Positions 15,861 to 35,111 of a stretch of DNA of 35,111 bases are shown in pieces. A program made the position numbers and the translations under genes. Below the pieces are notes generated by a model that was not told the DNA's origin, did not search any database, and was given only the letters and a program-made list of their open reading frames with translations. The DNA is from Cryptosporangium minutisporangium (GTDB taxonomy: Bacteria > Actinomycetota > Actinomycetes > Mycobacteriales > Cryptosporangiaceae): positions 131,497-166,607 of the forward strand of contig NZ_BAAAYN010000024.1 in assembly GCF_039536245.1 (NCBI RefSeq), in the 5' to 3' direction. Within the stretch, counting starts at the first letter, position 1. Every line of letters begins with the position of its first letter.

Positions 15861-15903
15861 GTTGGTCCGAAACTCACACAGGCGCCCGGGGGAAGGGGTG
15901 CTC

Positions 15904-19098: not shown

Positions 19099-21469
19099 AC
19101 GGCTCACGCCCGGTGTGTACGTCGAGGAGGTTGGCGGGAACGTCCGACCCATCCAGGGTGTCGGTACCTCCACGGCCGCCTTCATCGGCGAGGCAGCTCG
19201 CGGCATCCCGGACCGGGCGGAGTTCGTCTCCGGCTTCCGCGACTTCGAACGCCGCTTCGGCGGCCACCGCCGCGGCGAGGCCGGATTCCTCACCGCGGCC
19301 GTGGAGGCGTTCTTCGCCGCCGGTGGCCGACGCGCGTTCGTGGTCCGGGTGCTGCCCACGGACGCGACGCCCGGAGCGTCGGCCGAGGTACCGGCGCGGG
19401 CCGCGGACGTCTGGGGCGTGAACCGGCCCTCGCTGCGGTTCGACGCCCGTGGCAACGGTGCCTGGTCGGACCATCTGCGACTGCACGTCGAACCGTCCAC
19501 GTCGTTCACCGACCGGGCCTACCGGCTGCGCATCGAGTGGACCGAGGGCGGGCGCTCCCGGACCGTCGAGACGTTCGACAACCTCCGCACCGATCCGGAG
19601 TCGGAGGACTACGGACCGCGAGTGATCGAAGAGAATTCCCAGTACCTGCGGGCCACCGACCTGTTCCAGCGGGATCTGGACGCCGCCGAGCGCACCGCGC
19701 CACCGCTGCCGGAGCAGGTGCCGGCGCTGGTGTCCAGGGAGCCGACGGTTGAGGCCGGGCACCCGATCCCGGTCGGGGCCCGGCTGACGTTCAGCTGGCG
19801 GGACGGATCGTCCGGGCAGGGCACCGACGTCGCGAACCCACCGGCGGTAACGTTCAGCGAGGCGGCCGTGGAGGATGCCGGGGGCACCGTCGCGGCCGGC
19901 CGCGGCACGCTCACCCCGGCCCAGCTCCGCGCCGTTCTCGGCGACGCTCTGGGCGAGGAGTTCCGGGTCACCCGCCCCGACGACGGCGACCCCGGCGACG
20001 ACATCGTGCGAATCGAGCCGGCCGTGGCGAGCGATGCGTACCTCGCGGTCCGCCTGCCCGACGACGACACCGAGTTCGATGTCTCCGGGCTGACCGCGGT
20101 CCGGATCACCGCCGCCGACGCCGAAGGCGAGAACCCCGAAGCCGTCGAGGTGGATCTTCCCGACAACACCACCGCGCTCTCCCCGGCCGCGCTGGCCGAG
20201 CTGATCGCCGCCGCTATGGCGGACGACAACCCGTACGGCCTCGCGGTCGACGCCGCCGGCCCGTTCGTCGTGATCACCGCTCCGGCGGCCGCCGACGGCG
20301 TCGGACTGGCGATCGCCGCGGTGGGCGGGAACGCGCCGTGGCCGGAGCCCGACGTGATCGCGGGCGATCCGGGCGTACTGGTGGACTCGCTGCGCGGCGT
20401 GGAGATCACGGTCAGCGAGACGATCCAGCCGGGCGTCGCACGGGCCCTGTCCGGCCTGTTCGGCTCGGTCCGCAGCGCGGGTCTGGTGGAGAACGACCCC
20501 GGTGATCCGATCCTGCGCCCGGCGCTCACCGAAGACACCCCGCTGCGGCTGGTCGGCGGCGTCGCCGCGGTCCGCGAGGTCGGCGTCGCCCAGTACGCGG
20601 GCGGCGTCACCGACGCCGGCCGCACCGGATTGCACGCGTTCGACACGGTCGAGGTCAACCTGCTGGTCATGCCCGGACGCAACTCGCCGGACCTGCTGTC
20701 GGCGGCGATGGCCTACTGCGACGCCGAGGACGTCTTCCTGCTCGCGGACGGCGTCGGCAGCGTCGACACCGACTTCGAGATCTCCGCCGACGAGGTGCGC
20801 CAACTGGTGGAGGGGTTGCCGGGCCGATCGGACAACGCGGCGATGTACTACCCGTGGATCACCGTGCCCGATCCGGTGAGCGCCGGCCGCAACCCCCGTC
20901 GCCTGGTGCCGCCGTCCGGGCACGTGGCCGGCGTCTTCGCCCGCACCGACAGCACCCGCGGGGTGTGGAAGGCGCCGGCCGGGGTGGAGGCCATTGTCAG
21001 CGGCGCCGTCGACCTGCAGCACCGCCTCGTCGACGCCGACCAGGACCTGCTCAACCCGATCGGCCTCAACTGCATCCGGCAGTTCCCCGGCGCGGGCATC
21101 GTCACCTGGGGCTCGCGCACGCTCTCCTCGGATCCGCAGTGGCGCTACGTCCCGGTGCGCCGCACCGCACTGTTCCTCAAGGAGTCGCTGCGGCGCGGTC
21201 TGCAGTGGGCGGTCTTCGAGCCCAACGACGTGGATCTCTGGGACCGGATCCGGATCAACATCTCCGCGTTCATGCTCGGCCTGTTCCGCCAGCGGGCGTT
21301 CCAGGGCGCGACGCCGGAAGAGGCGTTCGCGGTCAAGTGCGACCGGGAGACCAACCCGCAGGAGCAGGTCGACGCCGGGATCGTCACCGCCCAGGTGGCG
21401 TTCGCGCCGCTGAAACCCGCCGAGTTCGTCGTGATCCAGATCAGCCAGAAGAGCCTGCTGGTGGTGTGA
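19091..21469 (+). CDS. contractile injection system tail sheath protein
   Basis: The 792-aa protein is the contractile sheath. The N terminus (LTPGVYVEEV, GVGTSTAAFIGEA, FRDFERRFGG) is typical. The subtilisin-like sheath core is at about 480-650 (VNLLVMPGRNSP, AMYYPWITVPDP), and the C-terminal domain that builds the inter-subunit mesh is at about 650-792 (INPIGLN-like NPIGLNCIRQFPG, GTRTL-like WGSRTLSSDPQWRYVPVRR, LKPAEFVVIQISQ). It is much longer than sheaths of 350-500 aa because of about 265 residues between 210 and 475 that contain two small alpha/beta modules, probably displayed on the outer surface. GGAGG at 19080-19084 precedes ATG 19091 by 6 nt. It contracts to drive the tube through the target envelope. 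Confidence 0.95.
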   Translation: MAERLTPGVYVEEVGGNVRPIQGVGTSTAAFIGEAARGIPDRAEFVSGFRDFERRFGGHRRGEAGFLTAAVEAFFAAGGRRAFVVRVLPTDATPGASAEVPARAADVWGVNRPSLRFDARGNGAWSDHLRLHVEPSTSFTDRAYRLRIEWTEGGRSRTVETFDNLRTDPESEDYGPRVIEENSQYLRATDLFQRDLDAAERTAPPLPEQVPALVSREPTVEAGHPIPVGARLTFSWRDGSSGQGTDVANPPAVTFSEAAVEDAGGTVAAGRGTLTPAQLRAVLGDALGEEFRVTRPDDGDPGDDIVRIEPAVASDAYLAVRLPDDDTEFDVSGLTAVRITAADAEGENPEAVEVDLPDNTTALSPAALAELIAAAMADDNPYGLAVDAAGPFVVITAPAAADGVGLAIAAVGGNAPWPEPDVIAGDPGVLVDSLRGVEITVSETIQPGVARALSGLFGSVRSAGLVENDPGDPILRPALTEDTPLRLVGGVAAVREVGVAQYAGGVTDAGRTGLHAFDTVEVNLLVMPGRNSPDLLSAAMAYCDAEDVFLLADGVGSVDTDFEISADEVRQLVEGLPGRSDNAAMYYPWITVPDPVSAGRNPRRLVPPSGHVAGVFARTDSTRGVWKAPAGVEAIVSGAVDLQHRLVDADQDLLNPIGLNCIRQFPGAGIVTWGSRTLSSDPQWRYVPVRRTALFLKESLRRGLQWAVFEPNDVDLWDRIRINISAFMLGLFRQRAFQGATPEEAFAVKCDRETNPQEQVDAGIVTAQVAFAPLKPAEFVVIQISQKSLLVV

Positions 21470-22146
21470 GCGTGCCGACCGAACCCGCGCTGACGCCCTG
21501 GTACCCGCTGCGCACCCACCAGTTCCGGATCGGGATCCTGCCGCCACCGCCGGACCCGACCGGCGGGCGCAGCTTCCTCGGCGCGCCGGTCGGCACGTCT
21601 CCGGCGACGCCGCCGCAGCCGGCGCCGGAGGGCCAGAGCTACGTCGCCGGCGTGAAGCGGGTCTCCGGGCTCAACGTCTCGATCGCCGCGACCGAGACCA
21701 AGGAGGGCGGGAACTCGCTGCACCGGTACGCGAATCCCGACCGGGCGACGTGGGACCCGATCACGCTGGAGCAGGGCCTGGCGGTCGACGACACGCTGGA
21801 GCGCTGGGCGGCCGCGGTGCTCCGGTTCCTGCGGACCGGCGCGGTCGAGCCCGGCGAGCCGGTGAAGCGCAACGTCGTCATCGATGTCTGGGACACCCGG
21901 CTGCACGGCGCCGATCTGTCCGAGGGCCTCGTCGGGTCGGCGGACGACGGCGGCCGTCCACCGGATCAACGGCTCCGCCGCTACATCGTCGTCAACGCCT
22001 GGATCAGCAAGTTCCGCGCCGTTCCCCAACTCGACGCGCTGAGCAGCGAGGTCGCGCTGCTCGCGGTCGAGCTGACCCATGAGGGCTGGCACGCCGACCA
22101 GCCGTCGGGCGGCGCGCCGGCCATCGCCACCCCCGTGACCATCTGA
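21466..22146 (+). CDS. CIS tube/tail protein, long paralogue
   Basis: The 226-aa protein belongs to the gp19/CIS tube group: FRIGILPP... at the start, VAGVKRVSGLNVSIAATETKEGG in the centre and WDPITLEQGLAVDDTLERWA, matching the KR.SGL, EGG and LE.G...D..F..W pattern of tube proteins. Residues about 20-55 are a Pro/Gly-rich insert in the first loop. It is probably a tube initiator or baseplate-proximal ring, with the shorter paralogue downstream forming the main tube (inference from PVC/AFP systems). GTG 21466 overlaps the sheath stop as GTGA; GTG 21472 is an alternative two codons later. No good ribosome site is present, so translation depends on coupling. Confidence 0.85.
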   Translation: MSVPTEPALTPWYPLRTHQFRIGILPPPPDPTGGRSFLGAPVGTSPATPPQPAPEGQSYVAGVKRVSGLNVSIAATETKEGGNSLHRYANPDRATWDPITLEQGLAVDDTLERWAAAVLRFLRTGAVEPGEPVKRNVVIDVWDTRLHGADLSEGLVGSADDGGRPPDQRLRRYIVVNAWISKFRAVPQLDALSSEVALLAVELTHEGWHADQPSGGAPAIATPVTI

Positions 22147-22155
22147 GGAGCACCC

Positions 22156-22644
22156 ATGCCGAGGTTCGAGGAGTCCGATCGCCGGGACCCGTTCCGCAGC
22201 TTCAACTTCCACATCGTCCTCGGCGGCGTCGAGGTCGCGGCATGCCGAAAGATGTCGGCGCTGGACGTGACCGTCAACAGCGTGAAGTTCCGAGCCGGGA
22301 ACAGCAAGTCGACGGTCGCGGAGATGCTGCCGACGCTGGTCGAGTACGAGCCGGTGACGCTGGAGGCCGGCGTCACCAACGACCGGGCGTTCGAGGAGTG
22401 GGCGAACCAGCTCGTCCACCACGAGGACCGTCCGGGCCGGACGGCCGAGCCGAACTTCCGCCGCGAGGTGGAGATCCACGTCTACGACATCGACAACACC
22501 ACGCTCGTGCGCAAGTACGTACTGCACCGAGCCTGGGTCTCGAAGTACACCGCGATGTCCGAGTTAGCCGGTGACAGCCAGGAAGTCCTCGTCGAGACAC
22601 TCCAGATCACGTTCGAGGGGTTCGAACGGATCGAGGTGTCCTGA
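22156..22644 (+). CDS. CIS main tube protein
   Basis: The 162-aa protein is a typical inner-tube subunit of CIS and of the T4 gp19/Hcp type: DPFRSFNFHIVLGGVEVAACRKMSALD, VAEMLPTLVEYEPVTLEAGVTND and FEEWANQLVHHED, ending in a beta-strand VETLQITFEGFERI. Stacked hexamers form the channel holding cargo. GGAG precedes ATG 22156 by about 7 nt. The gene ends in TGATG, sharing one base with the next start. It is a divergent paralogue of the 226-aa protein just upstream. Confidence 0.93.
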   Translation: MPRFEESDRRDPFRSFNFHIVLGGVEVAACRKMSALDVTVNSVKFRAGNSKSTVAEMLPTLVEYEPVTLEAGVTNDRAFEEWANQLVHHEDRPGRTAEPNFRREVEIHVYDIDNTTLVRKYVLHRAWVSKYTAMSELAGDSQEVLVETLQITFEGFERIEVS

Positions 22645-23718: not shown

Positions 23719-24504
23719 ATGGTGAACCTCGACCCCCGCCTGATCGCGTTCGGGGCCCAGCTCGAGCGCGGCGCGCTGATGCGCATCGGTGCGCCGGCGG
23801 CGTCCGGGTCCCCGGCGGCGGGGGCCACTGCGGCGCCGGGCGACGAGCTCACCGGCGACGTCCTGTACTTCCAGTACAACCCGGAGACGATCAGTCGGAC
23901 CCGGACCGGCAAGTGGGAACCCCGGAAGAAGCGCAAGAGCGGCACGGTCGCGGCACCGGCCGACGTCCGGCAGCGGGGCGGCCAGGGCTCGTCGGCACTG
24001 CTGGCCGAGGCCGAGACCGTCGCGCTCAAGGTGCTCTTCGACGCGACCGAGGCCGTGCTCGCCGGCCGCACCGACGCCGCCGAGTACGGCGTCCTGCCCC
24101 AGCTGGCGTTCCTCGAAGTGCTCTCGACCGGCAAGGAGGGACAGAAAGGCGACGCCCGTCGGGAGGCCGTCCAACCCGTGCGCCCGGACGAGCTGCTGCT
24201 GATCCTCGGTCAGCGGCGACTGTTCCCGGTGGTGCTCACGAACCTCACGATCACCGAGCAGAAGTTCCTGCCGACGCTGGTACCGCTCCGGGCCGAGGCC
24301 GACCTGAAGTTCACCGTGCTGGAGCCGGACGAGGCCGCGTACCGGGCGTGGATCTCGACCGCCTACGACCGGCTGCTCGCCGGCCGGGTGAGCGCCGCCG
24401 CGAAGGCCGCGGCCCAGGGCGACGTCGCCGCGGCGATCGCCCGCGAGCTGGCCGGTGACCCGTTCGCTCCGCGGCCGAGCGCCGCCGAGGGGGTGGCGAT
24501 ATGA
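23719..24504 (+). CDS. CIS tube-domain/hub protein (Afp7/Pvc7 N-terminal type)
   Basis: The 261-aa protein has the CIS_tube N-terminal fold: VLYFQYNPETISRTRTGKWE is the hallmark, followed by ALKVLFDATEAV, LPQLAFLEVLSTGKEG and the strand-rich LLLILGQRRLFPVVLTNLTI and FLPTLVPLRAEADLKFTVLE. In AFP/PVC-type systems the same protein usually ends in a LysM domain and joins hub and tube. Here the C terminus is only an Ala-rich helix, and a LysM-like unit is encoded separately downstream. The N-terminal Ala/Gly/Pro-rich insert (about 25-42) is unusual. Its stop overlaps a 27-aa mini-ORF as ATGA. Confidence 0.85.
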   Translation: MVNLDPRLIAFGAQLERGALMRIGAPAASGSPAAGATAAPGDELTGDVLYFQYNPETISRTRTGKWEPRKKRKSGTVAAPADVRQRGGQGSSALLAEAETVALKVLFDATEAVLAGRTDAAEYGVLPQLAFLEVLSTGKEGQKGDARREAVQPVRPDELLLILGQRRLFPVVLTNLTITEQKFLPTLVPLRAEADLKFTVLEPDEAAYRAWISTAYDRLLAGRVSAAAKAAAQGDVAAAIARELAGDPFAPRPSAAEGVAI

Positions 24505-24862: not shown

Positions 24863-26148
24863 GTCCGGCACAGCGCCGGCCGGTGCTCCGGCTCTGGCTG
24901 GACGGCGTCCCGCTGGAGAAGCTCGGCGACTGGGTGCTCCAGGTCGAGGTCGAGGAGCGCTGCGACGAGGCGTCCTCGCTCCGGCTGAGCGTCGACCTGA
25001 GCCCGATCCACGGCAGCGACGCCGCCGGTGACTGGGACGCGCTGGAGCGAGGCAGCTTCGCCGCCGATGCCGCCGTGCCGGACTTCGGCCTGCTCCGCCG
25101 CGTCACCGTCCAGTTCGGCCTGGAGAGCGACGACCCGGACGGGCCCGAGATCAGCAGCACGGTCTTCGACGGTTACCTGACCGCGGTCGAGCCGGTGTTC
25201 GGTGAGGCCAGGGTGCCCGACTCGCGGCTGGAGCTGACCGGCGTCGACGCGTCCTGCCTGATGCACTTCGAGACCGTCACGCGGACCTGGTCGGACCTCA
25301 CCGACGTCCAGATCGCCAGGGAGATCTTCACCCGCTACGGCTTCGCGGTCGTCGACGCCGGGAAGCCGGGCGCCACTCTGGAGGACGGCGGTCTCGACCG
25401 GCCCGGCGCCCGGGCCGTACTCGTCCAGCGCGCGACCGACGCCGAGTTCCTCCGGATGCTGGCGCGGCGCAACGGGTTCGAGGCCTATGTCGCGCCCGGG
25501 CCTGGCCCGGTCACCGCCGGGCCGCACCCGGCCGGTTCGGTCGTCGGGCACTTCCACTCCCCCGCGGTCGCGCTGCCGGAGCAGCCCGCGCTCGCGCTGT
25601 TCCCGCGAGACGCCCCGACGCTGGCCAGCTTCCGGGCCCGCTACGACAGCCACCAGCCGACCCGGATCATGGGCTGGCACATCGACGAGCAGACCCGGCT
25701 CCTGCAGCGGGTCACGGTCAGCGACCCGGGTTACCGGCGGATGGGCAGCCACAGCCGGGCCGACGTGCTGGCCACCCGACTGGCCGCAATCCAGCCGGTC
25801 CGGCATGGGACCTCACCGACGCCGATGGAGTCGGTCGACGTCCAGACCAGCGACGTGCCGCACTCGGCCGCGGAGGTGACCGCGCTCGCCCGCGCGGAGC
25901 TGCGGCTGATCGACTGGTTCGCGGCGGGCACCGGCACCGTGCTCTGCGAGCGGTACCCGGTGATTCTGCGGGCGGGCCGCCCGATCGGATTGACCGGCGC
26001 CGGCCACCTGCTCGACGGTTCCTGGTACGTCCGGGCGGTACGGCACCGGTGGGGCGTGGACCCGGACGAGGCGACCGTCGAGCAGTCGATCCGACGGTAC
26101 GAAGCGGACGTGACGCTGGTCCGCAACGCGCTCGGCGGGGCCGGCTGA
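24859..26148 (+). CDS. gp27/late control D-type baseplate hub protein
   Basis: The 429-aa protein matches the phage late control D / gp27 hub fold: an N-terminal strand set (PVLRLWLDGVPLEKLGDWVL, then EEASSLRL-like DEASSLRLSVDLSP), the middle GVDASCLMHFETVTRTWSDL with DVQIAREIFTRYGF, QRATDAEFLRMLARRNGFEA, and a C-terminal WYVRAVRHRW with EATVEQSIRR. It forms the trimeric hub that holds the central spike. It ends before any gp5-type OB-fold or beta-helix needle, so unlike VgrG it lacks the spike part. ATG 24859 overlaps the LysM stop as ATGA although the open frame extends far upstream. It shares one base with gp25 (TGATG). Confidence 0.87.
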   Translation: MSPAQRRPVLRLWLDGVPLEKLGDWVLQVEVEERCDEASSLRLSVDLSPIHGSDAAGDWDALERGSFAADAAVPDFGLLRRVTVQFGLESDDPDGPEISSTVFDGYLTAVEPVFGEARVPDSRLELTGVDASCLMHFETVTRTWSDLTDVQIAREIFTRYGFAVVDAGKPGATLEDGGLDRPGARAVLVQRATDAEFLRMLARRNGFEAYVAPGPGPVTAGPHPAGSVVGHFHSPAVALPEQPALALFPRDAPTLASFRARYDSHQPTRIMGWHIDEQTRLLQRVTVSDPGYRRMGSHSRADVLATRLAAIQPVRHGTSPTPMESVDVQTSDVPHSAAEVTALARAELRLIDWFAAGTGTVLCERYPVILRAGRPIGLTGAGHLLDGSWYVRAVRHRWGVDPDEATVEQSIRRYEADVTLVRNALGGAG

Positions 26149-26531
26149 TGGCCGGGATGGAGTTCTCGCTCGCGTTCCCGTTCCGCACCGCCGACCGGGG
26201 CGGGGCCGCGGTCTCCGGCCGCGCGGCAGCCGTGCACGAGCAGCTGGAGCAGCTGCTGCTCACGGTGCCGGGCGAGCGGGTCAACCGGCCCGACTTCGGA
26301 TGCGGTGTGCAGCGGCTGGTCTTCGGCGGCGCGAGCCCGGAGGTGGCCGCCGCGGCCGAGTACGTCATCTCGACGGCGGTCCGCCGATACCTCGGCGAGC
26401 TGCTGACCGTGGACGCGGTGCGGGTCACGGTCTCCGACAGCCAGCTGTTCGTCGACGTCCTCTACACGCTGGTCGACACCGGCGAGGAGCTGGTCGCGAC
26501 GATCGCCCAGCCGGTGGAGGGCGCGCCGTGA
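26148..26531 (+). CDS. gp25-like baseplate wedge protein
   Basis: The 127-aa protein is the gp25/lysozyme-like wedge subunit: EFSLAFPFRTADRGG, an EQLEQLLLTVPGERVNRPDFG motif (the conserved LLTxPGER.NRPdfG) and CGVQRLVFGG, followed by IAQPVEG. It starts sheath polymerisation at the baseplate and is among the best conserved CIS markers. ATG 26148 overlaps the hub stop. Its own stop overlaps a second mini-ORF as GTGA. Confidence 0.95.
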   Translation: MAGMEFSLAFPFRTADRGGAAVSGRAAAVHEQLEQLLLTVPGERVNRPDFGCGVQRLVFGGASPEVAAAAEYVISTAVRRYLGELLTVDAVRVTVSDSQLFVDVLYTLVDTGEELVATIAQPVEGAP

Positions 26532-26632
26532 CCGTGTACCCCGGCGCACTCCTCCGCTCCGCTCCTCGGTCGCTAGGACTCCCTGCGATGCTCCCCGCTC
26601 TCTCCGGAAACACGGCGGAGCGCACCTCATGA
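26528..26632 (+). CDS. 34-aa mini-ORF bridging gp25 and the giant wedge gene
   Basis: GTG 26528 overlaps the gp25 stop as GTGA and the TGA at 26630-26632 overlaps ATG 26629 as ATGA. As with the 24501-24584 frame, it exactly fills the gap between two CIS genes. The peptide (VTVYPGALLRSAPRSLG...) matches no family. The DNA contains a CT-rich string (26549-26577) with a CTAG core that resembles the opposite strand of the first spacer. Confidence 0.3.
   Translation: MTVYPGALLRSAPRSLGLPAMLPALSGNTAERTS
26549..26577. repeat. second REP-like element, inverse orientation
   Basis: CTCCTCCGCTCCGCTCCTCG followed by GTCGCTAGG resembles the reverse complement of the GAGCGTAGCGAGGAG string and CTAG core found at 24561-24575 and 24519-24522. 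The match is loose. This would be the second copy in the cluster, again confined to an intergenic spacer. Confidence 0.3.
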
Positions 26633-29600
26633 CGACGCGCGAGCTGAACGGCGCCGATCTGCCGGCCGCGCTCGCCGCGGCTCAGCAGGCGCTGCTGGCC
26701 GCCGCGTCGACCGGGCGGGCCGCCGACCAGGTCTGGCTGCTGCCCCCGGGCACCCATCGGATCAGCGGAACCCTGGACCTGGGTGCCCCCGGAGTCGCGC
26801 TGACGCTGCGCGGACGGCGCACGATCCTCGGCCTCGTCCCGGTGCCCGGGAGCGCCGGATCGGTGACCGCGCTCGGGCTGGGCGGCAGTGCGGTCGTCCT
26901 GGAGGACGTCGAGGTGACGTGCGCTCCGGTCGACGCCGACCTGGTCGGGATCCGGCTGACCGGCAGCGCCCGGGTAGCGGTGCGCCGGGTCCGGGTGACC
27001 ACCCTGCACGCCGCGACCACGACCGGGCTCCGACTGGAGGCACCCCGCGTCGAGCTGACCGACACCGGAGCAGCCGATCTGGCCGCGACCACCGGGCCCG
27101 CGACCGGCGTGCAAATCACTGCGGCCGACAGTCCGGGCGATGCCGCCGACGGCATCGTCACCGGCGTCCGGATCAGCGTATCCCGGGTGCGCGGGCCGCA
27201 GGCCCGTGGGCTTTCCGTGGACGCCGCGGCGGGCAGCCTGACCGGCCTGACGATCAGCGACACCGAGGAGCCGCTGCGGATCTCGGCCGGAGTCACGACC
27301 GCTGAGGTGCACATCGAGCGGCTGGCCGAGGCAGACGCACTGGTCGCCTGGCTGGCCGCCGCCCAGGAGCGGCTCGTGGCGGCACCGGCGGGCAGCGGCG
27401 AGACCTGGCGGCTCCCGGCCGGCTCCTTCGAGCTCGACGCCGGGCTGCGGCTCGGCGTCGAGGGCCGGAACCTGACCGTCACCGGCAGCCGGGACACCGA
27501 ACTCGTCTTCGGCGGCGCCGCCCCGCTCCCCGGTGACCTCGTCGGCCTGGACGTCCGAGGGGACCGCGTGCGGGTGGCGCAGGTGTCGGTGCGGGCGCGA
27601 GCCACCGGTGCGCTGACCGGGGTCCGGGCCACCGGCACGGTCTCGGCGCACGTGGACGACGTCCGGGTCAGCGGGCTCCGCGGCGCCGACGTGTTCGGTC
27701 TGGAGGTCACCGCGCCGGAGGCCGCGCTCACCGGCGTCACCGCGGACGACGTCCGTGCCACCGGCACGACCGCGACCACGCTCGGCATCGGAGTCGCGGT
27801 GACCGGCGACCGGGTCGGGGTGTCCCGGCTGACCGTGGCACGGCTCCGCGCTCCGCTCGTGACCGGCCTCGGGCTCACCGCGGCCGAGCGCGCCGACGTC
27901 GCGCTGCTGCGGCTGACCGACATCGCCGGGACGGAGGCCGAGGGCGCCCAGTTCCGGGTCGTCGGCCCGCCGGACACGCATCGGGAGCTCTCGCTGCTCG
28001 ACGTCCGCGCCGAGCAGGTCCGCGGCACCGGCGACTCGGCGATCGGCCTGGTCCTGTTCGTCAGCGGCGACCTGGGGCTGCGCGGAGTGTCGGTGGCCGG
28101 CGTCGAGGCGGCCACCGCGTACGGCGTCCTCGCGGTGGCCGCCGGCGCGCTCGACTGGCTCGGTGGCACGGTCACCGACATCCGTGGAGTCAGCCGCGGT
28201 GCGGCCGGTGCGCGGTTGCTGGCGATTCCGTCGCCGTCCGCGTTCACCGTTCGCGACGTCCACGTCGAGGCCGTGCGGGGCGCTGCCGTCGGGCCCTCGG
28301 CGCAACCGTCACCGTCGTGGCGCTCCTGGCTCGACCGGGTGCGGCCCTGGGTCGGGGACGGCACCGGCGTCGGCCCGCCCGGACCGTTCGCCACCGCGGA
28401 CCCCACCCACGTGGACGACGTCGCCGGGCTGCACGTCTGCGCGCCGGTGGACGAGAGCGAGCCGTGGCTGGAATCGGTGACCGACGCCGGTGAGGTGATC
28501 GTCGCCGAGTGCGTGGTGCGCCGGGTGAGCGGCACGGCGGTCCAGATCGACGGCGAACTCCGGGACTCCGAGCTGCGCGGCGTCGAGGTGTGGACCGCGA
28601 TCCGCAGCGGTCATCTCGCCGGTGAGCGGATCCGGCTTGCCCAGCTGACCGTCCACCGCGTCCAGACCGGCCTCCAGGTGGCCGCCGGAGCGCTGACCGC
28701 GGCCGACAGCCTGCTCACCGGTGTCGTCGACGGCGCCGCTCTGGTGCCCGGCGTGCAGGCCGAGGTCGACGCCGCGCTCGCGGTGTTCGCGACCGGCGCC
28801 CCGCCGCCGTTCCAGCTGCCGCCGGAGCCGCTCTACGTCACGCCGGGCCCGGTCGGGATCCCGCCATCGGTGCTGGCCGGTGGGCTGGCGCCGTCCGTCG
28901 CGGTCGACCTCCGACTGGCCGATCCCACGCGGCACGCGCTCGCCGTGCGGGTGCCGGGCGACGGCGACGACGTGCCGGTGTACCTGGGTGCACACCCCCC
29001 GGACGCGGATGCCCACTGCGCGCTGCGCGACCCCGACCCACCGCTCACGCCGGTGCCGCCGCCGGTGCCGCCTCCCGGTCCGCCCGTGGACTACCGCGCC
29101 CGGGACGCCCGCGGCCTGCTCGGTGTGATCACCGACCGAGCGAGCCGGGTGTTGCCCGGCTGGGCACCGACCGGCCCCGCCGACCAGACAACGATGTGGC
29201 TGGAGCTGCTCGCCGCCCGGCTCGACCAGCTCGCGTACCGGCAGGAGGTCGCCGTCGCCGAGGGGTACCTGGGCACCGCGCAGTCGCGCCGCTCGGTCGA
29301 GGATCACGCCCGGCTGGTGGACTACGAGCCCGACGCCGGGCTCTCGGCGACCACGATGGTCGAGCTGACGCTGGACCCGGAGCCGCTGGGGCTGGCCGGG
29401 GCACTAGCCAGGACCGGGGCGGTCGTGGTTCCGGCCGGCACGCTCGTCGTCAACCCGGACGCCGCCGACCGGCTGGTCGTGTTCGCCACCGAGGAGGACC
29501 TGCCGGTCGACCCGGCCTTGGCGGAGCTGCGACCGGCCGAACCCGTGCCGGTGGGCGCGACCAGCGCGATCCTGGCCGAGGACCTGACCGGCCTTCGGCC

Positions 29601-31011
29601 CGGCCGCTGGCTGGTCCTGCTGGCGGCCTCGGACGTCGACGTTCCACCGCACGTCGTCCGGGTGACCGCGGTGGAGCTGGGCACCGACACCACCCGGGTG
29701 TCCTGGGATCCACGCCGTCCCGCGCCGGTGGCGTACCTGCCCGGCGCGTGCACGGTGCTCGGCAACGTCGTCCCCGCGCACCACGGGCTGCCGCTGACGC
29801 CGCTCGCCGCCCAGGGCGCCGCGGCCGTGCTCGACGACGCCGAGCTCCTCCGCCCGTGGCGCGAGCGGCTCACGGTGCGGGTGACCGGCGGCGACACCCG
29901 CGAGGTGGACCTGCCGTGGCAGCCGGTCAGCCGCCACGCCGCGGGGTGGCCGCTGCCGGATCACCCGGCGCGCACCGGCGTGCCGCAGGTCCGGCTGAGC
30001 GTGGACGGCGAACCGTGGACGCTCGCCGACGATCTCGCCACGCTCGGCCCCGGCGACGAGAGCTTCGTGCTCCGGCCCGGCCACACCGGCGGGGTCGCGG
30101 CGGTGGTCGGGGACGGCGTGACCGGCACTCGGCTGCCCGACCGCGAGGTGACCGTCGAGTTCGGCGTCCGGATCGGACTGGGCGCGATCGGGAACGTGGC
30201 CGCCGGCACGTTGGTCCGGCTGCTGGCCCTGGGCAGCGGCGGCGACGCCGACCTGCTGCTCGGCACCGGCGACGCCGACCGGGTCGAGCTGCTGCGACGG
30301 CACCTGCGGGTGACGAACCCGGTGCCGGCGATCGGTGGACGCGACCCCGAGCCGCTGGAGCGGATCCGGTATGCGGCGCCGCTCGGCGTTCGTGAACTGC
30401 TTTCTGCCGTGGTGCCGGCCGACTACGAGCGCCTGGTCGGCGCGCTGCCGGAGGTCGCGGCGGCCCGGGCCAGGGTGCGCACCGACGCGCCTCGGCCGGT
30501 CGTGCGGGTGACGCTGCTGCTCCGCGACGAGGACGCGCTGACCGTCGCGGGCCCGCCCGGTGAGGCCGAACGGCTGCGTCGCTGGGCGGTCGCGAGAACG
30601 CGGCTGGAGGACGTCCGGCTGCTCGGCTTCGACGTCGAGCTGGTCCCGCCACGGTTCGTGCCGATCGACCTGGATCTGAGCATCGACGCCGCCGCCTGGG
30701 CGCGCGCCGAGACGGTTCGGGCCGGCGTCGTCGCGGCGCTGGCCGGAGACGGCGGGCTGCTCGACCCGGACACCTCCGGCCTCGGCGGCGATGTGCACCT
30801 GGACGCCGTACACCGGCGGGTGCTCGACGTGCCCGGCGTCGACGCGGTCCGGGTGCGGCGGCTGCGGCGGCTCCAGCCGGGTGCGGCCGACCACCGCACC
30901 GACGGCGTGCTGCCGGTCGGCACCGAGGAGGTCGCGGTACTGCGCCACCCGTACGGTCCCACCCAGCCGCAGGGCCTGCTCACGGTCGAGGTCTGCGGAG
31001 GCGTGCCATGA
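26629..31011 (+). CDS. giant CIS protein: tandem right-handed beta-helix fused to a baseplate-J-type wedge
   Basis: The 1460-aa protein has two unlike halves. Residues 1 to about 230 and about 236-600 each begin with a pectate-lyase-like opening (WLLPPGTHRISGTLDL; WRLPAGSFELDAGLRL) and continue as tandem coils of about 25-33 residues, each ending in GLxV-type turns (GVRATG, GLEVTA, GIGVAVTG, GLGLTA, GLVLFVSG, GVLAVAAG). A few more coils (about 620-720) end in a Pro-rich hinge at about 803-820. The rest (about 822-1460) is a baseplate assembly J-type wedge: MWLELLAARLDQLAYRQEVAV, YLGTAQSRRSVEDHARLVDY, VVVPAGTLVV, then C-terminal PLGVRELLSAVVPADYERLV and DLSIDAAAW. GGAG lies 8 nt before ATG 26629. 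The beta-helix may be a baseplate-mounted receptor-binding or spike element; that role is inferred. Confidence 0.85.
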   Translation: MTTRELNGADLPAALAAAQQALLAAASTGRAADQVWLLPPGTHRISGTLDLGAPGVALTLRGRRTILGLVPVPGSAGSVTALGLGGSAVVLEDVEVTCAPVDADLVGIRLTGSARVAVRRVRVTTLHAATTTGLRLEAPRVELTDTGAADLAATTGPATGVQITAADSPGDAADGIVTGVRISVSRVRGPQARGLSVDAAAGSLTGLTISDTEEPLRISAGVTTAEVHIERLAEADALVAWLAAAQERLVAAPAGSGETWRLPAGSFELDAGLRLGVEGRNLTVTGSRDTELVFGGAAPLPGDLVGLDVRGDRVRVAQVSVRARATGALTGVRATGTVSAHVDDVRVSGLRGADVFGLEVTAPEAALTGVTADDVRATGTTATTLGIGVAVTGDRVGVSRLTVARLRAPLVTGLGLTAAERADVALLRLTDIAGTEAEGAQFRVVGPPDTHRELSLLDVRAEQVRGTGDSAIGLVLFVSGDLGLRGVSVAGVEAATAYGVLAVAAGALDWLGGTVTDIRGVSRGAAGARLLAIPSPSAFTVRDVHVEAVRGAAVGPSAQPSPSWRSWLDRVRPWVGDGTGVGPPGPFATADPTHVDDVAGLHVCAPVDESEPWLESVTDAGEVIVAECVVRRVSGTAVQIDGELRDSELRGVEVWTAIRSGHLAGERIRLAQLTVHRVQTGLQVAAGALTAADSLLTGVVDGAALVPGVQAEVDAALAVFATGAPPPFQLPPEPLYVTPGPVGIPPSVLAGGLAPSVAVDLRLADPTRHALAVRVPGDGDDVPVYLGAHPPDADAHCALRDPDPPLTPVPPPVPPPGPPVDYRARDARGLLGVITDRASRVLPGWAPTGPADQTTMWLELLAARLDQLAYRQEVAVAEGYLGTAQSRRSVEDHARLVDYEPDAGLSATTMVELTLDPEPLGLAGALARTGAVVVPAGTLVVNPDAADRLVVFATEEDLPVDPALAELRPAEPVPVGATSAILAEDLTGLRPGRWLVLLAASDVDVPPHVVRVTAVELGTDTTRVSWDPRRPAPVAYLPGACTVLGNVVPAHHGLPLTPLAAQGAAAVLDDAELLRPWRERLTVRVTGGDTREVDLPWQPVSRHAAGWPLPDHPARTGVPQVRLSVDGEPWTLADDLATLGPGDESFVLRPGHTGGVAAVVGDGVTGTRLPDREVTVEFGVRIGLGAIGNVAAGTLVRLLALGSGGDADLLLGTGDADRVELLRRHLRVTNPVPAIGGRDPEPLERIRYAAPLGVRELLSAVVPADYERLVGALPEVAAARARVRTDAPRPVVRVTLLLRDEDALTVAGPPGEAERLRRWAVARTRLEDVRLLGFDVELVPPRFVPIDLDLSIDAAAWARAETVRAGVVAALAGDGGLLDPDTSGLGGDVHLDAVHRRVLDVPGVDAVRVRRLRRLQPGAADHRTDGVLPVGTEEVAVLRHPYGPTQPQGLLTVEVCGGVP

Positions 31012-33464
31012 GGCCGTCGCTCGACGCCCATCGTTCCCGGGAGCACAGCGGCCTGCTGGCGGCGATGGCCGCGGACGGCCGACGCCGGGCCCGGTCGCTG
31101 CCCCGCCCCTGGGATCCGGTCCGGCAGGAGCCGACCGAGCTGGCCGACCACGGCCGTGGACTGCTCGACGCGTACGCGCTCGGCCTGCACGTGCTCTGGG
31201 TCTACCAGGAGGCCTGGGCCGACGAAGGTTTCCTCGGCACCGCCCGGCTGCCGTCCTCCGTGCGGCGCCTGCTCGACCAGGTGGGCCATGCCGGGGACCC
31301 GGGGTTCGCCGCGGAGGGTCTGCAGCACTTCCGGTGCCGCGAGGGCGAGCCGGTGACGCTTCCACCGGGGTTCCGGGTGCGGGCCGAGGCGGTCGGCAAC
31401 ACCCCGGCCGCCGTGTACGAGACGACTCGCGCGCTGCGGCTCTCACCGGTGCTGAACGAGCTGCGCGCGACGCTCCCGGCGGCGCCGACAGGGCCGGCCG
31501 CGCCGTCCTCGGCCGGGGCGATCGCCGACGCGTTGCTGGAGCCGGAGATCATGGTGGGGCCGCCGGAGGTCGCCGGTGCGGTCGCGCTGACCGACTCGAT
31601 CGGCCAGCGCTTCGCGGTCGCCCGGGCCGGATCGCTCGCCCAGCGCAACGCCGGGCGGGCCCGGCAGCAGGCGCTCGGTCTCGCCGATCTGGTCAGCCGC
31701 CTGCGGGCGGCCGGCGCCGAAGCGCTCTGCTCGGACGTCTTCGAGCAGCTGTGCGCCGAGCTCTGCGCGGTGCAGGAGCTGGCCAACCAGGCGGGTTACG
31801 AGCCGGCGCCGGGGCCGCTCTCGGAGTCCCAGGAGTTGCTGCTCACGCTGCTCCGCGATCTGGCCACCCGGCAGCCGGACGCGGTCGAAGCGTTGGGCGG
31901 GGCTCTGGCCAGGCAGGAGGACGAGACCGACGCGGCGTTCTCCGGGCGCCTCGATCGCCTCGCGGCCTTCCTCGACGCGCTGGTCGGCAGGCTCCTCCAG
32001 GAGGCCCGCGACCAGGTCGTCCGGCTGCGCGGACCGCGTGCGCTGGAGACGCTGGACCGTTCCCTGGGCGCGAATCCGCCGGGCGCTCCGGTACCCGGCA
32101 GGGGCAGTGGGACCGCCGCTCCCGGCACCGACGCGCTGTTCCTACTGCCGGTCGGGAACCCGCCGCAGGATCCCGGCACGCTGCTGCGCCCCGGGGATTG
32201 GCTCGTGGTCGCCGACGAGAGCACAGAGGATCCCCCGACCCGGACGTACCGGGAGGCGGTCCAGGTCGTGCGCCTGCGTCGACAGGCCCTCCCCGGTACG
32301 TCCTCACCGGCGACCCGCGTCACGTTCGCGCCGCCGCTGACCCGCCGATACGACCTGGCGACCACCGTCCTTCTCGGAAACGTCGCCGAGATCACCCACG
32401 GCACGACCGTCACCGAGACGACGGCCTGGACCGGCGACGACGCCCACCTGCCGCTGACCGCCGGACCGCTCACCTGGATCCGCTCGGCGAGCCCGGACGC
32501 CGCCGGAGGCCGGGTGCCCGCAGTCGAACTGTCGGTCGCCGGGCGGGGTTGGAGCCGGGTGGACGACCTCCGCCACCGGGCCGGGACCGCTGCGTTCGCG
32601 GTCGAGGTGGCTGCGGACGCGACCGGTCGGCTGCGGCTGGCGGAGGCCACCGGTGGCGTCGGCGCCGCCGCCGTACCGGTCGGCGCCGAGGTCACGGTCA
32701 TCTACCGGACCGGCGTCGGCGCCGAGGGGAACCGCCCCGCGCTGGCGGTGGCAGCGGCCGCGGGTGCCGAGCCCGCGGTGGCGGCCACGTTCAACCCGCT
32801 ACCGGTGAGCGGCGGCGTCGATCCGGAGGACGCCGACGCCGCCCGGGCCCGCGCGGAGGCGGGGACGCACGCCCCCGGACGCGCGGTCTCCGCCGGGGAC
32901 GTGCGCGCGCTCGCGCTGGCGTTCGGCGGAGTGCGGCGGGCCGCGGTGCTGCGCGACCCGATCCGGCGGCGCGATCACGTCACCGTCGTCATCGCGGCCG
33001 AGGGTGGCGCGGACCTCGACCCGGCCGACGCCGCCCGGCTGCGGAGCTTCCTGGTCGCGCGGACGCCGCCGGGGACCGCGGTGACGGTCGTCGACCGGAA
33101 CGTCGTCCCGGTGCGGATGCGGCTCGTGCTGCGGATCGAGCCCGGTGCCGATCCACTCGCCGTGGTTCGTTCGACCAGGCTCCGGCTCGGTGCCGACGCC
33201 GAGCCCGGCGAGCCGCCCGGCCTGCTCCACCCCGAGCGCGCCGAGTTGGGCCGCGGGCTGGCGGTCTCGGCGGTCTACGGTGCGCTGGCGGGCCTCCCAG
33301 GTCTGGCCTCGGTACTGGTCGACCTGCTCTACCGGGACGGCACCGCGCCCGCGCGGCACGACCGGATAGCGGCCGGACCGGCGGCGCTGGTGGCGTGGGC
33401 CGCGGTGACGGCCGGGGGCGCCGACCCGCTGGACCTCGTCTGGGAGGAGGCGAGCGACCGGTGA
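31008..33464 (+). CDS. baseplate J-family assembly protein
   Basis: The 818-aa protein is a gp6-type wedge component. The N-terminal region (VYQEAWADEGFLGTARLPSS) matches the start of the wedge half of the previous gene, so the two are paralogues. The baseplate J core is in the C-terminal third: NPLPVSGGVDPEDADAARAR, GRAVSAGDVRALALAFGGV, VTVVIAAEGG and RMRLVLRIEPG. Residues about 165-560 form a large helical and beta-rich insert typical of CIS versions. It forms the iris of the baseplate with the gp25 and tail-protein-I-like neighbours. GGAGG 6 nt before ATG 31008 serves as ribosome site. It overlaps neighbours on both sides (ATGA and GTGA). Confidence 0.88.
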   Translation: MRPSLDAHRSREHSGLLAAMAADGRRRARSLPRPWDPVRQEPTELADHGRGLLDAYALGLHVLWVYQEAWADEGFLGTARLPSSVRRLLDQVGHAGDPGFAAEGLQHFRCREGEPVTLPPGFRVRAEAVGNTPAAVYETTRALRLSPVLNELRATLPAAPTGPAAPSSAGAIADALLEPEIMVGPPEVAGAVALTDSIGQRFAVARAGSLAQRNAGRARQQALGLADLVSRLRAAGAEALCSDVFEQLCAELCAVQELANQAGYEPAPGPLSESQELLLTLLRDLATRQPDAVEALGGALARQEDETDAAFSGRLDRLAAFLDALVGRLLQEARDQVVRLRGPRALETLDRSLGANPPGAPVPGRGSGTAAPGTDALFLLPVGNPPQDPGTLLRPGDWLVVADESTEDPPTRTYREAVQVVRLRRQALPGTSSPATRVTFAPPLTRRYDLATTVLLGNVAEITHGTTVTETTAWTGDDAHLPLTAGPLTWIRSASPDAAGGRVPAVELSVAGRGWSRVDDLRHRAGTAAFAVEVAADATGRLRLAEATGGVGAAAVPVGAEVTVIYRTGVGAEGNRPALAVAAAAGAEPAVAATFNPLPVSGGVDPEDADAARARAEAGTHAPGRAVSAGDVRALALAFGGVRRAAVLRDPIRRRDHVTVVIAAEGGADLDPADAARLRSFLVARTPPGTAVTVVDRNVVPVRMRLVLRIEPGADPLAVVRSTRLRLGADAEPGEPPGLLHPERAELGRGLAVSAVYGALAGLPGLASVLVDLLYRDGTAPARHDRIAAGPAALVAWAAVTAGGADPLDLVWEEASDR

Positions 33465-35111
33465 CCTCCACCGAACTGAGCCCGGCTGCCGACCGGCTGG
33501 CCTCCCTGCTGCCTGGCGTCTACCGCACCCGCGACGAGACCGTCGCCGGTCGGCCGCTCCGGGTGCTGCTCGAGGTGCTCGCCTCCCCGCTGGCCGAGCT
33601 GCAGGCCGCGATCGACCGGCTCCGCGACGACCACTTCGTCGAGCGGGCGGACCCGGCGGCGCTGCCACTGCTCGCCGAGCTGGTCGGCGCCCGGCTGCTC
33701 GGCGACGATCCGCGCACCAACCGCGGTGTCGTGGCCCGCACCGTCCACTGGCGCCGACGCAAGGGCACCGCGGCCGCGCTCACCGACGTGCTCCGCGTGA
33801 CCAGCGGGTGGGACACGGAGGTGGACGAAGCGTTCCGGTCGCTGCTCCAGACGCAAGACCTGGCCCACCCCCTGCCGTGGCGTGGCATGGTCGCGGTGCT
33901 CACCGACCCGATCGCGCTCGCCGACCCGCTGGCCCGCCGCGCACCGGCCGGGCGCGAACCGCGCCGGGCCGCGGAACCCAGCCGCCTGGCCGCCCGGCTG
34001 CCCGGTGAGAGCGTCGAGACGGCGCTGGCCCGGCTCGGTCGCGCCGACGCCGGTCTCCCGGCCGCCGCGCCCCGCACCGTGGACCTGCTGGGGTGGGCCC
34101 GGCCGGAGCAGACGGTGATCAGCACGGCGCGGTTCGACCAGGCCGAGCTGGACCGGGTCGAGCCCGGCGACCGGCGGCCGGTCGACGGCCCGGAACGCGG
34201 CTACCTGGGCCTGGTCCTCGACCCACGGGGCGGCGATCAGCCCCTGGTTGGACGGTCGCCTCTCACCGAGCCCGTCGCCGCGACGACCGAGCTGCACGAG
34301 CCGACCGCACCCGAACCGCCGACCGGGTTCCGGACGCATCTGCTCACCCCGACCGGACTGGCGCTGGACCCGGACGCCGCCGAGCGCGCCGACAGCATCG
34401 GCGTCTTCGTCGACGACGTCCGGGTCGTGGGCGGCGACCCGGTTCCGGCGGCCGGCGACGACCTCCGGATGGCGCCGCTGGGACCGGCGCCCCTGCTGCG
34501 GTTCGCGGACGCCGACCGTCCCGCACCCGGTGACGAGTGGACGCTCGGTCTGGTCGCGATCGGAGACCCGAGCCGAGTCGCGGCGGACGTGCTCGACGCC
34601 GAGCCCAACGGCGCGGTGACCGCGGCCAACCCCGGGCTGATCCGGGTGGTGGCCCGCCGCGGTGTCACCGGCCCGTCGGCGGTGTCGGACGCGGCGCAGG
34701 TGCCCAGGGCCGGAGCCACGATCGCGATCCGAGTGCGGCGGGCAGGCACCGACCAGGGACATCGTCGCGCCGCCGACGGCACCTGGCAGCGGTTCACGCT
34801 CGGCGAGGTCACCGGGGCACCGGCGAGCGACGCCACCGGCGTGGTGTCCGGCGGCACCCGGCTCGTCGCACGTCTCGAGCAGGCCACGGCCGGTGGGTTC
34901 GGACTCGCGCTCTGGCGTCCGGACTCGCCCGCGTCCCGGTGGACCTCCCGGCCCCTGCGGCTGGACGCTCTTCCAGCCGGCGACCGTCCGGCGGCCTCGG
35001 TGCCCGGCCCGGCGCTGGCCGCGCGCCGGATCGACGACGGCACGGTGCTGATCGTCGGACCGGCCACGGGCGGCACTACCGGGGCCTGGCGGATCCCGGA
35101 TCCGCTGGCCG
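33461..35111 (+). CDS. phage tail protein I-like baseplate wedge protein, partial (runs off window)
   Basis: GTG 33461 overlaps the preceding stop as GTGA. The frame stays open for 550 codons to the window edge, so the 3' end is missing. The N-terminal 150 residues match the tail protein I/gp7-like group of CIS: RLASLLPGVYRTRDE, RVLLEVLASPLAELQAAIDR, DPAALPLLAELVGARLLGD and VHWRRRKGTAAALTDVLRV. The rest is a beta-rich region of unknown fold (ERGYLGLVLDPRGGDQPLVG, SIGVFVDDVRVVGGD). It probably bridges the wedge to outer fibres. GGAGGAGG lies about 10 nt upstream. Confidence 0.87.
   Translation, partial: MTSTELSPAADRLASLLPGVYRTRDETVAGRPLRVLLEVLASPLAELQAAIDRLRDDHFVERADPAALPLLAELVGARLLGDDPRTNRGVVARTVHWRRRKGTAAALTDVLRVTSGWDTEVDEAFRSLLQTQDLAHPLPWRGMVAVLTDPIALADPLARRAPAGREPRRAAEPSRLAARLPGESVETALARLGRADAGLPAAAPRTVDLLGWARPEQTVISTARFDQAELDRVEPGDRRPVDGPERGYLGLVLDPRGGDQPLVGRSPLTEPVAATTELHEPTAPEPPTGFRTHLLTPTGLALDPDAAERADSIGVFVDDVRVVGGDPVPAAGDDLRMAPLGPAPLLRFADADRPAPGDEWTLGLVAIGDPSRVAADVLDAEPNGAVTAANPGLIRVVARRGVTGPSAVSDAAQVPRAGATIAIRVRRAGTDQGHRRAADGTWQRFTLGEVTGAPASDATGVVSGGTRLVARLEQATAGGFGLALWRPDSPASRWTSRPLRLDALPAGDRPAASVPGPALAARRIDDGTVLIVGPATGGTTGAWRIPDPLA

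What the first reader, a model, noticed from the sequence alone, without database searches (positions are those of the whole stretch)
26629..31011. Baseplate wedge carrying an N-terminal double beta-helix of about 800 residues
The first 800 residues show two pectate-lyase-like openings and more than twelve coils of 25-33 residues, and a Pro hinge joins them to a baseplate-J-type half. Phage beta-helices are normally separate tailspikes or central needles. Fusing one to the wedge would place several copies around the baseplate rim or, if folded inward, near the missing spike. This could be a built-in receptor binder or glycan-active element.
Basis: partly seen in the sequence, partly recalled or inferred. 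Interest (0 to 1): 0.72.

Follow-up and report, generated by a model that had tools for sequence, protein, structure and literature searches.

The report
Injection-machine baseplate protein with built-in beta-helix
A bacterial relative of a phage tail (a molecular syringe) appears to have swapped the small front domain of one of its baseplate proteins for a huge rod-like beta-helix, a fold that phages often use to grip cell surfaces, which would give the syringe extra arms that may touch its target or guard its needle.

Summary
Window 26629-31011 encodes a 1460-aa contractile-injection-system wedge protein whose first ~700 residues are predicted to be a beta-helix (AlphaFold2, 47 of 55 ten-residue blocks to residue 550 at pLDDT 80 or more; NCBIfam beta-helix hit E 1.9e-9). 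The 'two openings' are a tandem duplication (residues 10-198 and 237-417; profile E 5e-21), each with a cap helix. A Pro-rich linker joins this to a wedge core related to Streptomyces coelicolor Cis11 and T4 gp6.

It is not ordinary. In 14 of 14 ordinary actinobacterial relatives read, a different domain of 137-188 residues sits there; it has no significant match in front of the linker in the three loci with the beta-helix (this genome, Micromonospora pattaloongensis, one more Micromonosporaceae), whose cores form one clade. So it looks like a domain swap. It does not replace the fibre: a 2637-aa DUF6519-like fibre candidate lies downstream, and so does the 'missing' spike, which is lengthened.

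Best reading: six wedge-borne beta-helices form an arm or cage beside the long spike and serve as a second target contact, by analogy with the Alg11 cage of AlgoCIS. Fusion and fold class are well supported; copy number, position and function are inferred. New variant of a known kind.

The parts
26629..31011 (+). wedge1: Cis11/gp6-type baseplate wedge subunit with N-terminal double beta-helix, 1460 aa
   Evidence: ORF and codon bias; orthologues in G062 and G887; core profile A5 to S. coelicolor 9GTP chain 1K, E 1.7e-43
26629..27333 (+). residues 1-235: first beta-helix with cap helix 11-27
   Evidence: AF2 model, block pLDDT 69-94
26656..27222 (+). residues 10-198: first copy of the tandem duplication
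   Evidence: hhalign against 237-417, E 5.4e-21
27337..27879 (+). residues 237-417: second copy of the tandem duplication
   Evidence: hhalign
27334..28308 (+). residues 236-560: second beta-helix with cap helix 235-251
   Evidence: AF2 model, block pLDDT mostly 80-97; TIGR03805 hit on 254-349
28309..28728 (+). residues 561-700: helix 562-577 and loop, then a weaker strand-rich continuation
   Evidence: AF2 model, block pLDDT 43-83
28729..29028 (+). residues 701-800: conserved segment of unpredicted structure between beta-helix and linker
   Evidence: pLDDT below 50 in both models; 48% of residues 721-780 identical in all three proteins
29029..29085 (+). residues 801-819: Pro-rich linker
   Evidence: sequence; Pro-rich stretch at the same place in ordinary relatives; a profile of whole ordinary wedges matches from residue 801 on
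29089..31008 (+). residues 821-1460: wedge core
   Evidence: TIGR02243 E 6.2e-29 for the whole protein, 101 bits, below the curated 155.8; PHROG 219 and 6 'baseplate wedge subunit'; Foldseek to 9GTP E 4.9e-20
26148..26531 (+). gp25-like sheath initiator, directly upstream
   Evidence: PF04965 E 4.1e-13
31008..33464 (+). wedge2: second Baseplate_J/TIGR02243-like subunit, overlapping the end of wedge1 by 4 bases
   Evidence: PF04865 E 2.2e-7; TIGR02243 E 9.8e-27, below cut-off
33461..35110 (+). Tail_P2_I protein (Cis12/gp7-like), continuing past the window
   Evidence: PF09684 E 1.5e-6 on L026:4958-6691, the same gene
24883..26148 (+). baseplate hub (GPD-like)
   Evidence: PF05954 E 4.1e-6 on the longer ORF 24550-26148, 26.6 bits, below the curated 30.1; start from my gene caller
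23719..24504 (+). CIS_tube protein
   Evidence: PF19266 E 1.1e-7
22156..22644 (+). inner tube protein 2
   Evidence: PF06841 E 3.2e-28
21466..22146 (+). inner tube protein 1
   Evidence: PF06841 E 1.7e-17
19115..21469 (+). sheath
   Evidence: PF04984 E 4e-15

Best explanation
The gene encodes one of the two Cis11/gp6-type wedge subunits of an actinobacterial contractile injection system. In this small lineage the N-terminal domain (137-188 residues) of the ordinary wedge was replaced by a ~700-residue double beta-helix, made by duplication of a capped unit and joined to the core through the pre-existing Pro-rich linker (fusion and replacement: supported by sequence; fold: predicted with good confidence to residue 550). 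By homology with the S. coelicolor baseplate (two Cis11 plus one Cis12 per wedge) each particle should carry six copies, one per wedge (inferred). I think it most likely that these six rods, roughly 10-13 nm long by residue count and a recalled rise of 0.48 nm per coil, stand beside the central spike as an arm or cage built into the wedge. Fibres (the downstream DUF6519-like giant) would bind first; contact of the beta-helix tips with the target surface would then move the wedge directly and help open the baseplate, as proposed for the Alg11 cage of AlgoCIS. Position, copy number, ligand and trigger role are inferred, not shown.
For: Fold class and duplication. Core identity. Swap rather than addition: the profile of the ordinary N-domain recovers 14 of 14 ordinary wedges when each is left out (E 9.9e-15 to 7.8e-50), and in six frames of the three beta-helix loci as fetched its best hit is E 2.1; a profile of whole ordinary wedges matches own from residue 801 and G062 from 828, that is from the linker on. 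The three cores are one side of a branch with support 100/100. The helix diverges faster than the core, with a gradient from the far end: own/G062 dN 0.42 (residues 10-235), 0.35, 0.29, core 0.19. The same three loci have a spike of 403-406 aa with OB and gp5-type domains, against 165-225 aa at the 14 ordinary loci, so long spike and long wedge arm occur together. Precedents: PMC12237407 (passages): Cis11 is peripheral and surface-exposed, and an AlgoCIS Cis11 extension forms a cage around the spike. PMC13314943 (passages): Alg11 domains III/IV are the cage, with two potential carbohydrate-binding modules, proposed to open before the iris expands.
Against: No assembly was modelled; residues 691-830, which set the direction of the helix, are unpredicted. 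The swap may not be clean: single-sequence matches to the ordinary wedges of G018 and G002 reach back to residues 768 and 748, and the ordinary N-domain profile gives weak hits in G887 (E 0.0075 in a leave-one-out run, 0.0042 against the three proteins alone), mainly at residues 782-813 next to the linker, with smaller ones inside the helix. The Alg11 cage was not compared structurally. The beta-helix is poor in aromatic residues (F+W+Y 2.4, 2.2 and 1.4%, against 3.6-4.4% in the cores), which does not favour glycan binding. Faster divergence can also mean relaxed constraint. Only three members are known, so the link of long spike and long arm is one evolutionary event.
Confidence: 0.45

Rival explanations
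1. Structural collar only: the beta-helices are a passive sleeve or spacer that shields or centres the unusually long needle and stiffens the baseplate; they bind nothing.
For: Co-occurrence with the long spike; few aromatics; only weak similarity to carbohydrate-active families.
Against: Faster, outward-increasing divergence is more typical of a contact surface than of a packed collar. No assembly evidence either way.
Confidence: 0.27
2. Built-in glycan-active enzyme (depolymerase-like): the helix cleaves capsule or cell-wall glycan under the baseplate.
For: The listed Foldseek neighbours are largely GH55, PL6, AlgE epimerases and tailspikes.
Against: Those hits are weak (0 of 249 at E 0.001 or less) and follow from the shared fold. 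Up to E 1, the only Pfam family matched by any of the three N-terminal regions is the P22 tailspike, E 0.035. I looked at the conserved polar residues as a list only; no surface or active-site mapping was done.
Confidence: 0.1
3. Intracellular docking arm: the system acts inside the producer, as in Streptomyces, and the helix contacts a producer membrane protein (the role proposed for the CisA-Cis11 pair).
For: Streptomyces CIS particles are cytoplasmic and Cis11 is the predicted CisA partner (PMC12237407, PMC10066040, passages).
Against: This locus has a DUF6519-like fibre candidate and an eCIS_core-domain protein, unlike the fibre-less S. coelicolor locus. No CisA homologue was searched for and no membrane segments were predicted.
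Confidence: 0.1
4. The N-terminal region is a degenerating or neutral passenger domain.
For: It diverges faster than the core; against G887, dN and dS of residues 10-235 are about equal (0.82 and 0.80).
Against: It is kept at nearly full length and in frame in three genomes of two families, with many invariant positions, and dN is below dS in all four segments for own/G062.
Confidence: 0.05

Closest known systems
Cis11-type wedge of the Streptomyces coelicolor CIS (PDB 9GTP, J-like chain of 652 aa in 12 copies; that this chain is Cis11 is inferred from the copy number; PMC12237407, passages)
   Same: Same wedge core: profile A5 E 1.7e-43; core model to 9GTP E 4.9e-20.
   Different: Its match to the core profile starts at residue 13: no N-terminal domain in front.
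Ordinary wedge1 of other actinobacterial CIS loci (14 read here)
   Same: gp25-wedge1-wedge2 order in all 14, a Tail_P2_I-like gene recognised next in 12; homologous core of 28-35% identity in the 12 that were aligned; Pro-rich linker. DUF6519 confirmed by Pfam in 4 of 4 genes scanned.
   Different: N-terminal domain of 137-188 residues instead of ~800. Spike upstream of gp25 and short; between them 10 of 14 loci have a short gene I read as PAAR-like (Pfam support weak).
Alg11 of AlgoCIS (PDB 7AEB; PMC13314943, passages)
   Same: A Cis11-type wedge with a large extra part at the target side, proposed to sense a second receptor. Weak core match E 0.004.
   Different: Its cage is made of domains III and IV with possible carbohydrate-binding modules; the word beta-helix does not occur in that paper's text. 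Where its extra part is inserted was not tested.
eBAP5 (DUF6519) fibres of eCIS (PMC12923769, passages)
   Same: CIS proteins, correlated with Actinobacteriota, that often carry pectin-lyase-type beta-helices.
   Different: There the beta-helix is in the C-terminal region of a separate fibre gene; here it is at the N-terminus of the wedge itself, with a DUF6519-like gene present as well.
Phage tailspikes (P22, Sf6, HK620, CBA120 TSP3)
   Same: Same general fold class by Foldseek and weak profile hits.
   Different: Tailspikes are separate trimeric proteins (recalled); this one is fused to a wedge, with no supported homology to any one tailspike.

Membership tests
Cis11/gp6-type (TIGR02243-like) baseplate wedge | Sequence match of the C-terminal half to the family | tested here: met
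   TIGR02243 E 6.2e-29; A5 profile (15 rows, 12 of them ordinary wedges) to 9GTP E 1.7e-43. The window protein alone found no such wedge at E 0.001 by phmmer; its best was gp6 9F4A at E 0.51.
Cis11/gp6-type (TIGR02243-like) baseplate wedge | NCBIfam equivalog cut-off of TIGR02243 (155.8 bits) | tested here: not met
   101 bits for wedge1 and 93.8 for wedge2; so a relative, not filed as the equivalog.
Cis11/gp6-type (TIGR02243-like) baseplate wedge | Wedge fold, and gene position between gp25 and the second wedge/Tail_P2_I genes | tested here: met
   Foldseek 9GTP E 4.9e-20, T4 gp6 5HX2 chain D E 1.5e-13; model pLDDT 63.5, TM only about 0.2. Gene order.
   No Pfam family matches wedge1 at E 0.1; the Tail_P2_I gene is a separate one downstream.
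Right-handed parallel beta-helix | Parallel strand solenoid with N-terminal cap | tested here: met
   AF2 model; TIGR03805 E 1.9e-9 in 2 of 3 members, below the curated cut-off. Prediction only; handedness was not measured but taken from the neighbours found.
Phage tailspike depolymerase | Separate trimeric spike with catalytic residues | tested here: inconclusive
   It is fused to a wedge, so not a separate spike; trimer state and catalysis not tested; profile hits E 0.019-0.035 only.
eBAP5 (DUF6519) fibre | DUF6519 domain | tested here: not met
   No DUF6519 match to wedge1. The downstream giant is similar to Pfam-confirmed DUF6519 genes (phmmer E 1e-13 to G018, 3e-13 to G1065) but does not itself match the Pfam model at E 0.1, nor does its G887 counterpart.
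AlgoCIS-type wedge cage | Wedge extension surrounding the spike and opening on firing | not testable with these tools
   No complex prediction or particle structure available.

The most novel reading that the evidence does not exclude
A distinct subtype of contractile injection system in which the wedge itself is the second receptor sensor: six wedge-borne double beta-helices form a cage around an elongated needle that seems to lack a PAAR-like tip, so that touching the target pulls on the wedge directly, without a separate fibre in between.
Probability: 0.3. Interest if true: 0.75.

Novelty: new variant of a known kind. Interest (0 to 1): 0.56.

Why it matters
How target contact is passed to the baseplate to fire a contractile injection system is open. 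A receptor-type fold fused directly to a wedge subunit would turn that question into a one-protein experiment. It also suggests that the N-terminus of the Cis11-type wedge is an exchangeable slot with at least three states (nothing, a 137-188-residue domain, a ~800-residue beta-helix region).

Tried and rejected
Considered and rejected: gp7/Pvc12 identity of the core; replacement of the fibre gene; a missing spike; a chance ORF; a widespread ordinary domain.

Led nowhere: sequence homology of the wedge helix to the beta-helix of the giant protein or to the Tail_P2_I protein (best E 0.08 and 0.036). PDB sequence search with the N-terminal profile: 2 chance hits, E 0.38 and 0.43. Viral contig scan: 303 pattern matches, 0 relatives. 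Phage and plasmid tblastn: 3 and 9 records, all matching from residue 822 on. Autocorrelation: weak. The second AF2 model (residues 640-1460) did not resolve residues 640-825. One local match of that model to a Klebsiella K1 capsule lyase (94 columns, E 9e-4) could not be placed because the output gives no ranges.

G210 (open frame 1397) looked like a further long wedge; my gene caller gives a 650-aa gene with a chance open frame upstream. G154's 1533-frame belongs to another gene of that genome; I printed only part of it and did not test its fold. In one search the frames printed for L110 and L098 were of the wrong strand; the gene caller gives 650 and 653 aa there. G1053/G1073 (1186 and 1167 aa) have their extra length inside the core.

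Rows dropped: of the 28 genomes with a core match in the order search I read the gene in 15 (3 with the beta-helix, 12 ordinary); the other 13 were judged by the open frame of the best hit only (1151 aa or less, too short). Two more ordinary genes (G154, G562) come. Gene ends outside annotated records come from my own simple gene caller. The name PAAR-like was my reading; Pfam PAAR_motif was found in 3 of 5 such genes scanned, E 0.00022-0.012, below cut-off, and in none of the other 2, so the absence of PAAR in the three loci (0 hits with a 10-gene profile) is weak evidence and was softened on re-check.
Full report
WHAT IS THERE. The window lies in a 9.2-Mb genome, contig C24 131497-166607, of the same order as named Micromonosporaceae relatives. 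It holds a contractile injection system (CIS) operon on the + strand: sheath (19115-21469), two tube proteins, a protein with a weak T4_baseplate match (PF12322 E 0.00037, below cut-off), a CIS_tube protein, hub, gp25, wedge1 (26629-31011), wedge2 (31008-33464) and Tail_P2_I (from 33461). Beyond the window follow a 2637-aa protein with a beta-helix match (L026:8851-16764), a 403-aa spike (L026:17312-18523; OB domain E 1.6e-19, Gp5_trimer_C 30.2 bits, just under its cut-off of 30.9; its G062 and G887 counterparts pass it), an eCIS_core-domain protein and, on the other strand, an AAA ATPase.

THE PROTEIN. Wedge1 is 1460 aa. AlphaFold2 with a three-row alignment predicts residues 1-550 as a confident strand-rich solenoid (47 of 55 ten-residue blocks at 80 or more), a weaker continuation to about 690, and no confident structure for 691-830. 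Cap helices sit at 11-27 and 235-251. Profile comparison shows that 10-198 and 237-417 are copies of each other (E 5.4e-21, 36% identity), while 561-760 matches neither part. TIGR03805, a parallel beta-helix model, matches at E 1.9e-9 in 2 of 3 members, below its curated cut-off. Of the 50 PDB neighbours listed by Foldseek, 49 are enzymes or tailspikes that I recall as beta-helices, but none of 249 reaches E 0.001 and TM-scores are low; in the viral library 2 of 214 do. So the fold class is supported; no particular relative is.

THE CORE. Residues 821-1460 match PHROG baseplate wedge families and TIGR02243. The A5 profile finds a J-like chain of the S. coelicolor baseplate (9GTP, 12 copies) at E 1.7e-43 and T4 gp6 at 7e-13; the core model (mean pLDDT 63.5) finds 9GTP at E 4.9e-20. 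PMC12237407 (passages) says each wedge there has two Cis11 and one Cis12, so this chain is presumably Cis11. Here wedge1 and wedge2 are two different Cis11-like proteins and Tail_P2_I would be the Cis12-like one; six copies of wedge1 is my inference.

RELATIVES. The whole protein was sought in 101 genomes: 11 match, only the own genome and G062 over the full length, the other 9 from residue 748 or later. With the core profile, 28 of 397 genomes of the order match, and a third long member, G887, appears. With N-terminal profiles: 1 of 394 genomes of the class, 2 of 250 of the family of G062, 1 of 160 of G887's genus. The genome-contig scan, which used two short peptide patterns, gives one locus, Micromonospora pattaloongensis DSM 45245, whose contig length (214075) equals that of G062's contig. 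In a phylum sample 25 of 286 genomes have a TIGR02243 gene; among the frames over 1300 aa the own one is the only one with this N-terminus that I recognised, one (G210) being a chance frame and one (G154) another gene not tested for fold. These samples overlap and hold one genome per species. In the own family (5 genomes) a same-genus genome, G002, carries an ordinary CIS.

A DOMAIN SWAP. In the 14 ordinary wedge1 genes read, the core motif (DYLAKD-like) starts at residue 138-189; in the three helix members at 808, 821 and 843. The ordinary N-domain has a shared pattern (NGID-VEV ... GD-S-YTL ... F-F); that it is a beta-sandwich is only my reading of that pattern. A profile of it recovers each ordinary member when left out (14 of 14) and has no significant hit in six frames of the three helix loci as fetched (best E 2.1). 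Leave-one-out versions give weak hits to G887 (0.0075 at best), and against the three proteins alone G887 scores 0.0042, mainly at its residues 782-813 beside the linker, with minor pieces inside the helix. A profile of whole ordinary wedges matches the own protein from residue 801 and G062 from 828, while single-sequence matches to G018 and G002 begin at 768 and 748. So the exchange lies in front of or near the linker, and a short remnant of the old domain may remain. The three cores are one side of a branch, support 100/100, on a long stem.

CO-CHANGES. In the three helix loci the spike is 403-406 aa and lies downstream of the giant gene; in the 14 ordinary loci it is 165-225 aa and lies upstream of gp25. 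A profile from 10 short genes between spike and gp25 of ordinary loci, which I read as PAAR-like, finds none in the three loci; Pfam supports that reading only weakly, in 3 of 5 scanned. The giant protein is similar to DUF6519 genes of G018 and G1065 (phmmer E 1e-13 and 3e-13), which Pfam confirms as DUF6519, though the giant itself does not reach the Pfam model. PF13229 beta-helix is found in the own giant (E 1.4e-7); the G887 giant has only a pectate-lyase-like hit at E 0.025. PMC12923769 (passages) names DUF6519 as the eBAP5 fibre anchor, correlated with Actinobacteriota, often with C-terminal pectin-lyase beta-helices. So the wedge helix comes beside the fibre candidate, not in its place.

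EVOLUTIONARY RATE. Identity own/G062 is 47% for residues 1-235, 58% for 236-560 and 75% for the core; dN falls along the chain, 0.42, 0.35, 0.29, core 0.19, with dS 0.53-0.80. Against G887, dN and dS of the first part are about equal (0.82 and 0.80), so strong constraint is not shown there. This fits a target-facing end or relaxed constraint; it does not decide between them.

MECHANISM. In AlgoCIS, domains III and IV of the Cis11-type wedge form a cage at the spike, carry possible carbohydrate-binding modules, and are proposed to open before the iris expands (PMC13314943, passages). I propose that the beta-helices here do the corresponding job with a different fold. Supported here: fusion, predicted fold class, duplication, swap, a single clade, co-occurrence with a long spike. 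Inferred: six copies, position, ligand, trigger. Main rival: a passive collar for the long needle. The glycan-enzyme idea has no direct support; the low aromatic content speaks mildly against it.

PRIOR ART. Paper searches (listings only, except four papers of which I read passages: PMC12923769, PMC10066040, PMC12237407, PMC13314943) showed me no report of a beta-helix at the N-terminus of a CIS wedge. The library lacks most subscription papers and all bioRxiv preprints, and I could not search predicted cellular structures, so an unrelated case elsewhere is not excluded.

Noticed in passing
L026:8851-16764 (downstream of the window): A 2637-aa DUF6519-like protein with a PF13229 beta-helix match (E 1.4e-7), against 432-1322 aa in the four ordinary DUF6519 genes scanned (one of them cut by the end of the fetched stretch); similar giants lie in G062 and G887.
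   Followed up: partly
L026:4958-8783; L029:8818-12513; L080:2034-5954: The Tail_P2_I protein of this subtype is 1231-1306 aa in G062 and G887, with a weak kelch-like match in the middle (PF24681 E 1.6e-5, below cut-off), against 661-852 aa in the 12 ordinary loci where it was recognised. In this genome the gene holds an unresolved base just past the window's end.
   Followed up: partly
window 28729-29028 (residues 701-800): The segment between the helix and the linker is among the best conserved parts of the N-terminal region, yet neither model gives it a structure; it may dock the helix on the baseplate.
   Followed up: no
L082:8988-12548 and L083:6528-10031: Two ordinary-type wedge1 proteins are 1186 and 1167 aa, with several hundred extra residues inside the core rather than at the N-terminus; possibly another kind of wedge extension.
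   Followed up: no
L094:724-6357: An 1877-aa protein at the end of the locus has an eCIS_core domain (E 2.4e-19) and a metallo-beta-lactamase-fold match (E 5e-5); a cargo candidate.
   Followed up: no
L087 (G154 contig C2, 222,614 bases): An ordinary CIS lies on a contig of the same length as plasmid NZ_CP108040.1 of Streptomyces sp. NBC_00299, which also matched in the plasmid search: such systems may be plasmid-borne.
   Followed up: no
window 15898-16671: A LuxR-type response regulator gene lies upstream of the operon (PF00196, PF00072), with a similar one upstream in G062 by its opening sequence: possible regulator of the system.
   Followed up: no
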